A stretch of DNA of 64,000 bases, taken from Diphasiastrum complanatum. Taxonomy: Eukaryota; Streptophyta; Lycopodiopsida; Lycopodiales; Lycopodiaceae. The position numbers and the translations under genes are program-made. Under the pieces are notes generated by a model. It did no database searches. It saw nothing but the letters and a program-made list of their open reading frames with translations, and had not been told where the DNA came from. The stretch spans positions 36,450,954 to 36,514,953 of the forward strand of contig CM055096.1 of the NCBI GenBank assembly GCA_029204225.1, written 5' to 3'. Shown here in pieces: positions 2,666 to 58,700 of this stretch. Each line of letters opens with the position of its first letter. The first letter of the stretch is position 1.

Positions 2666-3142
2666 GGTATGATGCTGTTCCACTTGACTTTCAAGTTGTT
2701 GGATCTTAGCTGGTGAATGAGAGGAAGCTTCGATTTTGACAGCTGCAACTTCTTTCTTGAGATCATCGATAGACGAATCTAGTTTTTGAACGTGAGATTG
2801 AACAGCTTGGATCATAGCTTCAAGAGAAAGAAGCTTTTTTTGATGGTCGTTGAGATATTCATAGGAACGTAACTGATCTGCACGAATGACGGAGATCATA
2901 AAGGCTAGAGGCAGAAGTGATTCCTCTGTTGGGGTATTCGGGGTCAAAGGATCGGCTATGATGGATTCACTACTAGCCAGCATAGGATCTGACGGAGATA
3001 TAGGGATTGCAACTGGAATAGAAGGTGAAGGTGAAGGTGAAGGTGGGTCTGAAATGGATGAAGAAGACGATGAGGCAGATGAAGAAGATGATGATGAAGC
3101 AGTGTTGGAGGGAAGGGAAAAAGCCCCTTTACGGCGAGGCAT
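2666..3142 (-). pseudogene. LINE ORF1 N-terminal part
   Basis: ORF1 begins MPRRKGAFSLPS at 3142. It has a Ser-rich stretch, a Pro/Ser repeat, the family motif IPISPSDPML, then DQLRSYEYLNDH and a heptad-like coiled coil (KKLLSLEAMIQAVQSHV) ending near VEQHHT. The same order occurs in the LINE copies at 32633 ([22 protein letters not shown]) and 57946. This is the RNA-binding, trimerising protein type of L1-like elements; the RRM-like domain seen in other copies would follow but is removed by the LTR insertion at 2666. Sequence past 2666 in the same frame is LTR, not ORF1. Confidence 0.7.
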
Positions 3143-3149
3143 CTCAGCG

Positions 3150-3572
3150 ATGCACTGAGGGAAACAGTGTTCAGCGCTCAGAGAGTATGGAGCAGCCTCA
3201 GGACAACAAAGTCGTTTAGGAGGGCGATGGAGCAGGTAGCCAGGAGGGCGATGGAGCAGCCTCAGTGATGGAGGAGATATCCAGGATCAGCGATGCACTG
3301 AGGGAAACAATGCGATTCAGCGCTTAGAGAGTATGGAGCAGCTTCAGGACAGCGAGGGTCAGTCGTGTAGGAGGGCGATGGAGCAGGTAGCCAGGAGGGC
3401 GATGGAGCAGCCTTAGCGATGGAGCAGATAGCCAGGAGGGCAGCCTCAACGTTGGAGCATCCTCAGCGATGGAGCAGATAGCCAGGAGGGCAGCCTCAAC
3501 GATGGAGCAGGTAGCCAGGAGGGCGATGGAGCATCCTCAGCGAGGGAGCAGCCTCAGCGCCACCATAGCTGC
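3150..3572 (-). repeat. Repeated 5' leader of LINE copy 1
   Basis: Short imperfect units built on GATGGAGCAG, TAGCCAGGAGGGC and CCTCAGCGATGG recur at least six times, and a longer block is itself duplicated (around 3159 and 3290). Repeated leaders upstream of ORF1 act as promoters in many L1-type elements; here that role is inferred from position only. Confidence 0.65.
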
Positions 3573-3650
3573 AGAGAGAGAGAGAGAGAGAGAGAGAGAG
3601 AGAGAGAGAGAGAGAGAGAGAGAGAGAGAGAGAGAGAGAGAGAGAGAGAG
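3573..3650. repeat. (GA)39 microsatellite between LINE copies 1 and 2
   Basis: A perfect dinucleotide run of 78 bp. On the minus strand it is the (TC)n tail of LINE copy 2 and abuts the 5' end of copy 1. It is followed by three AAAG-type units at the tail end. Confidence 0.95.
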
Positions 3651-3680
3651 AAAGAAAGAAAATGTATTATTGTCTGTTGA

Positions 3681-3694
3681 GTGCCCAAGGGCAC
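3681..3694 (-). other. 3'-terminal hairpin of LINE copy 2
   Basis: GTGCCC-AA-GGGCAC, a perfect 6-bp stem, about 30 bases before the (TC)n tail. The same position in other copies forms a stem with different bases. Confidence 0.7.
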
Positions 3695-3991
3695 ATAAGA
3701 CAGAATGAATAAGTACATGTCTCGTAGGATTACTGTCCATGTCGGACAACATAATAAAAAACACTAGTCTAAATGGAAAAGACAAAATAGAACTCTCTCG
3801 AGCTAGGAAAAGACATAGCCAATATAGAATCATAAAATGCATAAACAGAGTAGATACACAAGAGCTTAACCTCCAACTCTGAAGAGGGTACAGGTGCAAG
3901 AGCTTAACCGCCTGCTCTGCTGAGGAAAGCAAAAGCATAAATATCAATCTCGAAAAAAGCATCTGATACCCATAGCAGCTGTGGGCTGTGA

Positions 3992-4318
3992 TCAAGGAGC
4001 TCTGGTAGCTCTAGAGGCGCACGTAGATCTGGCAAGAGGTGGTGGCTGAGCACGCTGGGCCTTCGCCCTCACCGGTATGACTGCCTCATCAGTAGGGACA
4101 AGGCCAGGTATGACAAGGAAGGGCCAACCCGTCAGAGCCTTGGAGCTGCTCTTGATGGTTCTTCCTCTAATTCTGAGCAATTACTCCTTCACTTTCACCT
4201 GAGGCTCATCACTCAGCTGCAGCGACGCTTCTCTGACATCGCATTCCACAGAAGAGAATCCGGGCTTCAAGACATGGATCCGCAATCCTGGATCGTAAGC
4301 AAATGCAAGTTTATTTCC
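3992..4318 (-). pseudogene. Non-LINE coding fragment carried in LINE copy 2
   Basis: Reading minus from about 4318, one frame stays open for about 100 codons apart from a single in-frame TAA: GNKLAFAYDPGLRIHVLKPG, then about 24 more residues ending QVKVKE, stop, LLRIRGRTIKSSSKALTG and on to RATRAP at 3992. The composition looks protein-like and it matches no APE, RT or ORF1 region of the other copies. It may be a piece of a host mRNA picked up during retrotransposition. I do not recognise the protein. Confidence 0.4.
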
Positions 4319-56543: not shown

Positions 56544-57231
56544 TCGGGGTAGGTGAATGTGCCATAATGATAGTGGAAGGAATAAACGAAAACTTGAGGG
56601 AGCGGACTCTTGTCGTCACCCCAAATTAGCCTATTACAACCAATATTATCACAACTGAAAAAAAAACAGACAACAATGAACAATGGAGAAGCTGTAAAAA
56701 TGCACTGGACAGCCAGGGATACAATGTGAATTTGAAAGAGTAAACGGAGTCAGAATTCCTGAAAATGTGGTGGAGAATGAGCGCGCGACAGCCTTTTGAT
56801 AAGCTGTAAAAGATGGCTAGAATTGGAGAAAAAAAAAGACAAAAGTGACAAGTTGGGAGTGCTGAGGCAACGATTTATAGGTTGAAGAATTTTAGCTGTT
56901 TGGAATAGCAAATGATGTTGGAATTGGGTAGTTTTTGGATGAGGATGGGCGCTGGACAATCAGGGAACTAACTGTGGAAGATGGCTGCAAACTGGAAAAA
57001 TATCAGACGAAAGTGATAGGTCGGAAGGCAGGGACAACGATGGAAAGGAAGAGGAGGAGCGCTGGGCAGCAACGAAAAGAGGGGACAAAACAGGGGGAAC
57101 GCTAGGCAGGAAGGAGTGGAAGGAGACAGCGATGGAACAGGGCTGTCAAACGATAATGGAGCTATAGGAACAACGATGGAGGAGCAAGGCAAGGTAGCAA
57201 AGAAAAAATTCCAGATTGTGTTCAGAAAAGT

Positions 57232-57243
57232 GCTCTGATACCA
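57232..57243 (-). other. Primer-binding site of element D
   Basis: TGGTATCAGAGC on the minus strand, immediately after the LTR end TAACT. Confidence 0.9.
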
Positions 57244-57661
57244 AGTTACGAATAGAGCCACAACTGATCTAGAATTAAGCTATGAAAGCATCACATAAGC
57301 AAGACTTAACCCTAGAAAGCATGAAAGAGAGAGGTTAAGGAGACTAAAGAGAGAGATCAATATCATCAACTGAATGACAAATGACACAGTTTCTCTACTT
57401 ATAGCCAAGAGGAAGCCCTAAAAGGAAGCTTCCAGTGGCTAGGGCCCAACTGGGAGGGATAATAGTGCGCCCTCCAAGAAGGCCCCCACTCTCCAGTAAT
57501 ATGTCCAAATGGCCTAATAATGAATAATAAGGCCAAAGGCCAACCATATAGTCTGAATGTCACTAATGAATAAAAAAGGGCCCAAGGCCTGCTTATGCAT
57601 AAAGTAAAGTAACTGTAAATGTAAATGGACGTGGCGAATGTAATGAGCCGAGTCCATAACT
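57244..57661 (-). repeat. 5' LTR of element D (418 bp)
   Basis: Same length and ends as 51989-52406. Confidence 0.93.
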
Positions 57662-57764
57662 ATTTGTTTCAAAATTTGCATATGGGACAAATGAGCCCTT
57701 GTGCTGAAACACCAATGCTAACCAGCCTGAAAAATCTGAAATGACAAAGTCTATCAATGACTGG

Positions 57765-57824
57765 TCTCTCTCTCTCTCTCTCTCTCTCTCTCTCTCTCTC
57801 TCTCTCTCTCTCTCTCTCTCTCTC
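57765..57824. repeat. (TC)30 upstream of LINE copy 10
   Basis: Perfect 60-bp run that abuts the 5' end of a plus-strand LINE. Confidence 0.95.
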
Positions 57825-58684
57825 AGCGCCCAGCGGATCTCCATGGCTGCTGCCTAGCGATGGCAGTTTCTGCTTGCTCCATCGCGCCTGTCCTCCATCT
57901 CGTTCTAGCTTCCAGATCTGATCCATCACTGACCAGCGATGCTCTATGGCTCTTTGCGCCTCACAACCAGATCCAACTTCGCCTTGTACTTCTATGCTCG
58001 TTGCAATTCCCATCTCTCCATCAAATTCTATTTCGAACAATGTAACTACTAAAGCTATTCCCTTGACTCTAGACACTCCAGAAGCACTTGCTTCTCTCTC
58101 CACATATACCTTAGTCAGTCTTCTTCGTGAGGATCAACTCTGTCTATTTGAATACCTTAACAATCATTGAGAGAAACTTGCTTCCCATGATTCTCTGCTT
58201 CTCGTTGTGCAAGCGCACCTTCAGAAGCTAGACCCTTCCATTGCAGCACTCAAAAACGAAGTTGCAGTTATCAAAATTTCTTCCCAGATTGCTACCACAG
58301 CTAAAATTCAGCAGCTCGAAAGTCAAGAGAAACAGCACCATAAGGCTGTCCAATCATGAGCAGATGTACTTAAAGGTTCGTCTATAACCCTCACCTTCGT
58401 TTATCTCAGCCACCTTCACCAAGGGCCGTCTGTGAGAACACAAAGCTCTCAATGTTCGTGTTAAAGGTATTCTGAACTCCCAAAATGCTGTTGAAGAAGC
58501 TGAAAAGTTTTTGGAAGGAAATCTTCAGCACCATAGCAAAGGTATGGAAACTGCCTGGCGACCTAATTAGTTTGTTTTTAGTTAGATTGTTTTGACGGCA
58601 CTGATCCACCTTGTTTCCATCTTATTTGGTATACTTGTTCATCTTATACGCCTTTCGGCATGGAAAAGACGTTAATAAAGCGCG
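57825..58684 (+). mobile_element. LINE copy 10, ORF1-only derivative, plus strand
   Basis: 860 bp between (TC)30 and (CT)8, with the sense strand TC-rich on both sides, exactly as the minus-strand copies. It begins AGCGCCCAGCGGATC, similar to the AGCGGCCAGCGCC start of copy 5. ORF1 follows, then the family 3' end with a stem at 58648-58661 and GTTAATAAAGCGCG-(CT)n. There is no ORF2. Confidence 0.8.
57970..58565 (+). pseudogene. LINE ORF1 in copy 10
   Basis: Reads VAIPISPSNSISNN, LVSLLREDQLCLFEYLNNH, then a stop, HDSLLLVVQAHLQKLDPSIA, IQQLESQEKQHHKAVQS, stop, ADVLKGSS. Shifted frames give ALNVRVKGI-like and [20 protein letters not shown] sequences. Closely related to copy 5; lacks its C-terminal domain. 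Confidence 0.7.
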
Positions 58685-58700
58685 CTCTCTCTCTCTCTCT
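58685..58700. repeat. (CT)8 tail of LINE copy 10
   Basis: Short CT run directly after TTAATAAAGCGCG. Confidence 0.9.

What the first reader, a model, noticed from the sequence alone, without database searches (positions are those of the whole stretch)
2666..58700. A plant LINE family that appears to insert specifically, and in one orientation, into (TC)n/(GA)n microsatellites
Ten LINE pieces are present. All seven with a readable 3' end (3651, 5047, 7714, 31494, 32984, 38084 on minus; 57825-58684 on plus) end in (TC)n on their own sense strand. Eight 5' ends, both full-length and truncated, abut a GA/TC tract (3573, 4797, 7593, 32894, 38011, 41231, 47155, 57824), again always TC on the sense strand. 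Copy 10, alone in host sequence, has TC on both sides. Microsatellite-targeted non-LTR elements are known to me from animals (for example TC-repeat and TTC-repeat families); I recall none described in plants.
Basis: partly seen in the sequence, partly recalled or inferred. Interest (0 to 1): 0.95.

Follow-up and report, generated by a model that had tools for sequence, protein, structure and literature searches.

The report
Plant jumping gene targeting TC repeats
A family of jumping genes in a plant genome prefers to land, always the same way round, inside runs of the two-letter repeat TC, a habit known from other organisms but for which we found no plant description.

Summary
The window has nine LINE insertions plus one internal duplication. 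All seven readable 3' ends run into (TC)n, and eight of ten 5' ends abut (TC)n on the element's own strand. The window's genome (1.74 Gb) was held, so further copies could be tested. In a set caught by a 120-bp 3'UTR query (30 loci, 25 distinct insertions), 18 of 25 5' ends directly follow (TC)4 or more and 21 of 25 3' ends run into it; a random position does so at 0.1-0.7%. A 5'UTR/ORF1-query set gives 18 of 21. 5' ends start at many different element positions yet abut TC, so TC is not a fixed element end. One insertion (L014/L015) has a paralogous empty site with the same flanks around (TC)n(TA)n. The preference is strong, not absolute: at least 4 of 25 have non-TC 5' flanks, and one empty site is not a survey. 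The element is an APE-endonuclease/RT LINE with a covarying 3' hairpin; its nearest relatives of named organism are from a fern (Adiantum). Each tail is a new target, which explains the head-to-tail chains. Kind known elsewhere; no plant case in my searches.

The parts
2663..3572 (-). copy F: 5'UTR and start of ORF1, interrupted at 2663 by an LTR-like sequence
   Evidence: TC39 abuts its 5' end
3573..3659 (-). (TC)n between copies G' and F
3660..4796 (-). copy G': short copy in which no ORF2 match was found, 3' hairpin at 3662-3731
4797..5046 (-). (TC)125 between D and G'
5047..7592 (-). copy D: 5'-truncated just before the RT, abuts (TC)60 at its 5' end
7593..7713 (-). (TC)60 between E and D
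7714..9290 (-). copy E: 5'-truncated, 5' flank is host sequence without TC (exception)
31472..31493 (-). pyrimidine tail of copy C, (TTTC)n(TC)n, then host
31494..32893 (-). copy C: 5'UTR, ORF1, 3'UTR; no ORF2 match
32894..32983 (-). (TC)45 between B and C
32984..38010 (-). copy B: longest copy, ORF1, APE endonuclease, RT, 3' hairpin; frames broken
38011..38083 (-). (TC)36 between A and B
38084..41229 (-). copy A: 5'-truncated before the RT, with an internal 0.75-kb duplication
41230..41327 (-). (CTCA)n(TC)38 at the 5' end of A, in non-LINE sequence
44600..47155 (-). copy G: old, 5'-truncated in the endonuclease, beside an anthranilate synthase-like gene, abuts (TC)15
   Evidence: extent upstream of 45406 by eye
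47156..47186 (-). (TC)15 at the 5' end of G
57765..57824 (+). (TC)30 at the 5' end of copy #10, in host
57825..58685 (+). copy #10: 5'UTR, part of ORF1, 3'UTR
58686..58699 (+). (TC)7 at the 3' end of copy #10

Best explanation
A LINE family of the APE-endonuclease kind inserts preferentially inside (TC)n/(GA)n microsatellites. Inferred mechanism: the endonuclease nicks the GA strand; the freed (GA)n 3' end pairs with a pyrimidine tail on the element RNA, just past a conserved 3' hairpin that the reverse transcriptase binds; reverse transcription starts there, which fixes the orientation. Slippage or tail copying leaves (TTTC)n or (TTC)n between the element and the old tract; second-strand joining, full-length or truncated, happens in the upstream half of the same tract. 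The tail is then a fresh target, giving chains TC-LINE-TC-LINE. Copies without ORF2 presumably move with the enzymes of full copies. Shown: the flanks, their orientation, the 5' heterogeneity, the hairpin covariation and one empty site. Inferred: nick position, annealing, slippage, trans-mobilisation.
For: 3' ends: 7 of 7 in the window; outside it 32 of 33 complete hairpin ends reach (TC)4 or more within 60 bases (five incomplete hits dropped; a few rows are duplicated DNA); 10 of 10 read of a second subfamily run into (TTTC)n and/or (TC)n (10 of the 40 places listed). 5' ends: 18 of 25 distinct insertions from a 3'UTR query (30 loci of 40 matches of 1366 candidates; read; five duplicate pairs merged) and 18 of 21 distinct insertions (28 loci) from a 5'UTR/ORF1 query with 59 match rows abut (TC)4 or more; a random window position does so at 0.0066 with LINE tracts counted, 0.0008 without. 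Aligned 5' ends start at many different points of the 5'UTR, each directly after TC. Empty site: in L014 and L015 the flanks of the filled site (86% over 415 bp on the 5' side, 83% over 121 bp on the 3' side) occur again, inverted, around a (TC)n(TA)n compound repeat without the element. Solo copies lie in differing hosts, several next to other microsatellites. Hairpin: 88.6% of cells pair, 11 cells with changes on both sides vs 3.7 shuffled, score 0.264 vs 0.159. EN and RT domains.
Against: Four of 25 (L032, L038, L050, L055) have a 5' flank without TC; two more (L043, L058) cannot be judged, and L053 has only (TTTC)n with about two TC units. In the other set L006, L010 and L019 lack TC ((GA)7 for L019); window copy E too. 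So some insertions are off target, or lost the upstream tract. In L032 the 5' side is copia-like coding DNA and no such match was seen in the 3' side read, so rearrangement is possible there. Only one related empty site was in hand; the genome search that would give more did not answer in 27 tries. 11 of the 18 TC-flanked 5' ends in the 3'UTR-query set lie behind another LINE's tail, so they depend on earlier insertions. Hairpin controls: the number of pairs changed on both sides was reached by 26 of 500 shuffles and the number of pair types by all 500.
Confidence: 0.85

Rival explanations
1. The TC is only a 3' tail made or carried by the element, which inserts without sequence preference; TC at 5' ends comes from nesting in tails.
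For: Tails vary ((TTTC)n, (TTC)n, (TTCTA)n), as slippage would give. L055 sits in a (TA)n with TC only on its 3' side. Eleven of 18 5' TC tracts in one set are tails of a neighbour LINE.
Against: Solo copies in host DNA have TC on the 5' side. One empty site has the TC. Nesting in tails at this rate is itself a preference for TC.
Confidence: 0.08
2. TC at both ends is part of the transcribed unit (transcription starts in the upstream tract), so both tracts are copied with the element wherever it lands.
For: Copies with a full 5'UTR nearly always have 5' TC, while truncated copies are mixed. Some 5'UTRs hold short TCTCTC runs.
Against: 5' starts are scattered along the 5'UTR and into the coding part, each abutting TC (window D, A, G). 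The empty site has TC without the element.
Confidence: 0.04
3. Chains arise by recombination between TC tracts that moves or duplicates LINE units, not by insertion into TC.
For: Head-to-tail chains; local segmental duplications around the window; copy A holds an internal duplication.
Against: In the window's chains neighbours differ in sequence and truncation. Solo copies in differing hosts show the same flanks.
Confidence: 0.03

Closest known systems
Microsatellite-targeted LINEs of animals, e.g. the TC-repeat family of fish in the Tx1 clade (Kojima and Fujiwara 2004; content recalled, only its title seen in reference lists; paper not held)
   Same: APE-type LINE; sits in TC repeats (recalled)
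   Different: Plant host; strong but incomplete preference; conserved 3' hairpin; (TTTC)n linker; ORF1-only derivatives; chains. Which of these the fish family shares was not tested; no sequence comparison was possible.
LINEs labelled L1-Tx1 in fern and conifer annotations (Ceratopteris PMC6890710; Cryptomeria PMC11539532; passages seen)
   Same: Ferns and conifers hold Tx1-labelled LINEs; organism-named plant proteins nearest here are from a fern and a conifer
   Different: The passages shown give amounts only and say nothing on target sites. Identity with this family not tested.
Plant L1 with conserved 3' hairpin (monocot lineage, review PMC3747384, passages seen)
   Same: 3' hairpin with compensatory changes, stringent-type 3' end
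   Different: Almost all flowering-plant L1 end in poly(A) according to that review; here a pyrimidine tail, and no RNase H match in the pieces scanned
Lepidopteran RTE elements linked to microsatellites (PMC2887409, search listing only)
   Same: LINE ends beside microsatellites
   Different: Its title says the element generates repeat families; here the repeat was present at the one empty site tested

Membership tests
Microsatellite-targeted LINE (kind, not clade) | Same microsatellite on both sides of most copies | tested here: met
   5' TC 18 of 25, 3' TC 21 of 25, both 15 of 25
Microsatellite-targeted LINE (kind, not clade) | Microsatellite present at the empty site | tested here: met
   One site only, L014/L015; no other empty site was in hand
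Microsatellite-targeted LINE (kind, not clade) | Fixed orientation to the repeat strand | tested here: met
   TC on the sense strand at the LINE-adjacent tracts read; exception: (GA)7 before L019
Microsatellite-targeted LINE (kind, not clade) | Strict specificity (nearly all copies) | tested here: not met
   At least 4 of 25 with non-TC 5' flank
Tx1 clade (L1 group) | APE endonuclease and RT | tested here: met
Tx1 clade (L1 group) | RT groups with Tx1 references | not testable with these tools
Flowering-plant L1 | Poly(A) 3' tail | tested here: not met
   Pyrimidine-rich tails in the 7 window ends, 33 other complete ends and 10 of a second subfamily
Flowering-plant L1 | RNase H after the RT | tested here: not met
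   No RNase H match in the ten window pieces scanned (nine of LINE, one of another gene) or in relatives P0001 and P0002; window frames are broken
LINE with stringent 3' end | Conserved, covarying 3' hairpin | tested here: met
   with the control results given under evidence against

The most novel reading that the evidence does not exclude
An old land-plant lineage of LINEs has kept TC-microsatellite targeting through deep subfamily splits, and its pyrimidine tails seed and lengthen TC tracts that become its next targets, so element and microsatellite spread each other through the genome.
Probability: 0.35. Interest if true: 0.78.

Novelty: new variant of a known kind. Interest (0 to 1): 0.66.

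Why it matters
Microsatellite-specific LINEs are known to me from animals, and my searches listed no plant case. A plant family that lands in GA/TC repeats bears on how endonuclease specificity evolves, on why a plant genome carries long TC tracts, and on safe-harbour insertion. More than a thousand first-look candidates in one genome make target choice, off-target rate and tail slippage directly countable.

Tried and rejected
Rejected: TC as 3' tail only (empty site, solo copies with 5' TC); TC as a fixed 5' part of the element (scattered starts). L058 was first taken as an off-target copy, but its upstream sequence matches DNA in L010, L020 and L026 that looks like LINE ORF1 (the ORF1 reading is by eye), so it is not judged; L043 ends at an LTR-like edge (by eye) and is not judged. 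L045's 3' flank resembles an LTR edge and gave no empty site. L008's host holds tandem units with (TC)28 and (TC)21 but no LINE, then (TC)23 with the LINE; suggestive, not counted as an empty site because the 3' flank differs. W 23042 matches L055's host but is no clean empty site. Flanks of 33 loci and five window stretches were compared with the DNA in hand; only L014/L015 gave both flanks again around an empty tract. No relative of P0002 in viral contigs.

Not done: a wide empty-site survey, other species' genomes, flanks of the fern relatives, and a tree with Tx1 references.
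Full report
What was checked. The window was searched for tandem repeats and self-similarity, and TC/GA tracts were read on the element's sense strand. tblastn of window reading frames mapped the LINE pieces, and the sequence was read around them. There are nine insertions and one internal duplication. All seven readable 3' ends run into (TC)n. Eight of ten 5' ends abut TC; E and the internal duplication in A do not. Copy G was extended to 47155 by eye, from endonuclease motifs in decayed frames; tblastn covers 44617-45406.

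The element. Copy B spans about 5 kb with ORF1 and an APE-type endonuclease (Exo_endo_phos, 2.5e-5, just over its cut-off); the reverse transcriptase is matched in the sister copies A, D and E (RVT_1, best 2.5e-27). Frames in the window are broken. C and #10 lack ORF2 matches, and so do 15 of the 21 distinct insertions of the 5'UTR/ORF1 set, where ORF1 is followed by a 3' end with no ORF2 between. The 3' end has a two-part hairpin followed by a conserved TTAATAA-type end; on 12 sequences 88.6% of cells pair and sliding the partner lowers this to 33-62%. Eleven cells changed on both sides against 3.7 in shuffles; but the number of such pairs (4) was reached by 26 of 500 shuffles, and pair types did not exceed shuffles. 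The structure was drawn from these sequences, which favours it. RNAalifold finds nearly the same structure.

Relatives. A protein search with copy B (one of three allowed) found 395 proteins, 120 listed; those with a named organism are from the fern Adiantum nelumboides, the conifer Taxus chinensis and one fish. In an RT tree of 120 rows the four window copies group (SH-aLRT 98) inside a clade of 29 rows (100) that holds four Adiantum rows; two Taxus rows lie outside it (quick method, no Tx1 reference). The window copies are far apart within the group, so the family is old and diverse. The genome has 1.74 Gb in 5176 contigs; of contigs C1 to C23 those whose length I saw (20 of 23) have 42-102 Mb and C24 has 11 Mb. 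That would fit the lycophyte Diphasiastrum complanatum, which is my recollection and not a test.

Genome copies, 3' side. Outside the window 33 complete hairpin ends were found in the loci then in hand; 32 reach (TC)4 or more within 60 bases, and one (L027, 1272) has (TTTC)n and then another 3' fragment. Five incomplete hits were dropped and a few rows are duplicated DNA. For the D-type 3'UTR, 10 of 10 places read (of 40 listed) run into (TTTC)n and/or (TC)n. The tail beside the element is often (TTTC)n or (TTC)n and becomes (TC)n further out, as expected if the element adds a slippage tail to a TC target.

Genome copies, 5' side. The 3'UTR query is blind to the 5' end: 1366 candidates, 40 scored, 30 loci cut. 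Five pairs are the same insertion in duplicated DNA, leaving 25, one of them window copy #10. 18 of 25 have (TC)4 or more directly before the element: seven with no LINE end seen just upstream (L029, L031, L034, L035, L036, L046, L054) and eleven behind another LINE's tail (L033, L039, L040, L041, L044, L045, L047, L048, L049, L056, L057; in L056 the 5'UTR is recognised by eye and followed by foreign sequence). Four have other flanks (L032, L038, L050, L055), one has (TTTC)n with about two TC units (L053), two cannot be judged (L043, L058). 3' TC of four or more units: 21 of 25; the others are L036 (no tail, endonuclease frame follows), L046 and L054 ((TTTC)n only) and L050 (broken pyrimidine tail). 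The 5'UTR/ORF1 set (59 match rows; 28 loci read, 21 distinct) gives 18 of 21; L006, L010 and L019 fail. That set is chosen for 5' parts. These counts were made by reading the outputs. A random position in the window has TC4 just upstream with p 0.0066, or 0.0008 outside LINE tracts; 18 of 25 has a binomial chance of about 3e-34 or less; insertions in chains are not independent, so the figure is only a guide.

Why TC is a target. First, aligned 5' ends begin at many points of the 5'UTR, and truncated copies (window D, A, G; L044, L045) begin in coding or 3' parts, yet abut TC. Second, solo copies lie in differing hosts, several next to other microsatellites (L009, L014, L016, L041, L049). Third, the empty site: in L014 and its inverted duplicate L015, the filled site reads host-(TC)55-element-(TTTC)n(TC)n(TA)n-host, and a nearby inverted paralogue reads the same host flanks around (TC)n(TA)n, with a few single-base breaks and no element. 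This is one site, seen in two copies of a duplicated stretch.

What does not fit. Off-target 5' flanks exist. L055 lies in (TA)n with TC only on the 3' side. L032 has copia-like coding DNA on its 5' side. Whether these copies brought their own TC is open, because the genome search did not complete.

Literature. Seen as passages: PMC4640811, PMC3747384, PMC12477314, PMC6890710, PMC11539532, PMC3706591. Microsatellite targeting by non-LTR elements is named there in general terms; the TC-repeat family of fish is recalled. The listings of my searches for a plant case showed none; searches failed. Most subscription papers and Repbase are not in the library, so a plant case may be in print or in a database.

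Verdict. A plant LINE family prefers TC microsatellites, in one orientation, at a high but not complete rate.

Noticed in passing
L006, L008, L009, L011-L016, L025-L028 and window 31494-32893: Many copies are about 1.5 kb: 5'UTR, ORF1, 3'UTR, no ORF2 match, like a half-LINE that would need ORF2 in trans.
   Followed up: partly
L036 and L042, about 1500-2070: The 3' hairpin of an ORF1 unit is followed directly by the endonuclease frame without any tail; a chimera, or an internal hairpin between ORF1 and ORF2.
   Followed up: no
window 47190-49970 (+): Anthranilate synthase-like exons (chorismate-binding match at 49585-49965; the rest by eye); LINE copy G lies just before or in this gene.
   Followed up: no
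C5 about 98 kb below and 62-64 kb above the window's matching parts: Parts of the window recur nearby at about 98-100% identity (local segmental duplications), with TC tract lengths already different.
   Followed up: partly
L008:591-1427 (sense orientation): Tandem units that look like mitochondrial atpA DNA (by eye), each ending in a TC tract; LINE follows only the last.
   Followed up: partly
window 58739-58876 and 50755-50882: A repeat in the 3' host flank of copy #10 recurs at 50755-50882 (90.6%) without a TC tract beside it.
   Followed up: partly
window 61047-61396: Two tandem copies of a 175-bp unit, 97% alike.
   Followed up: no
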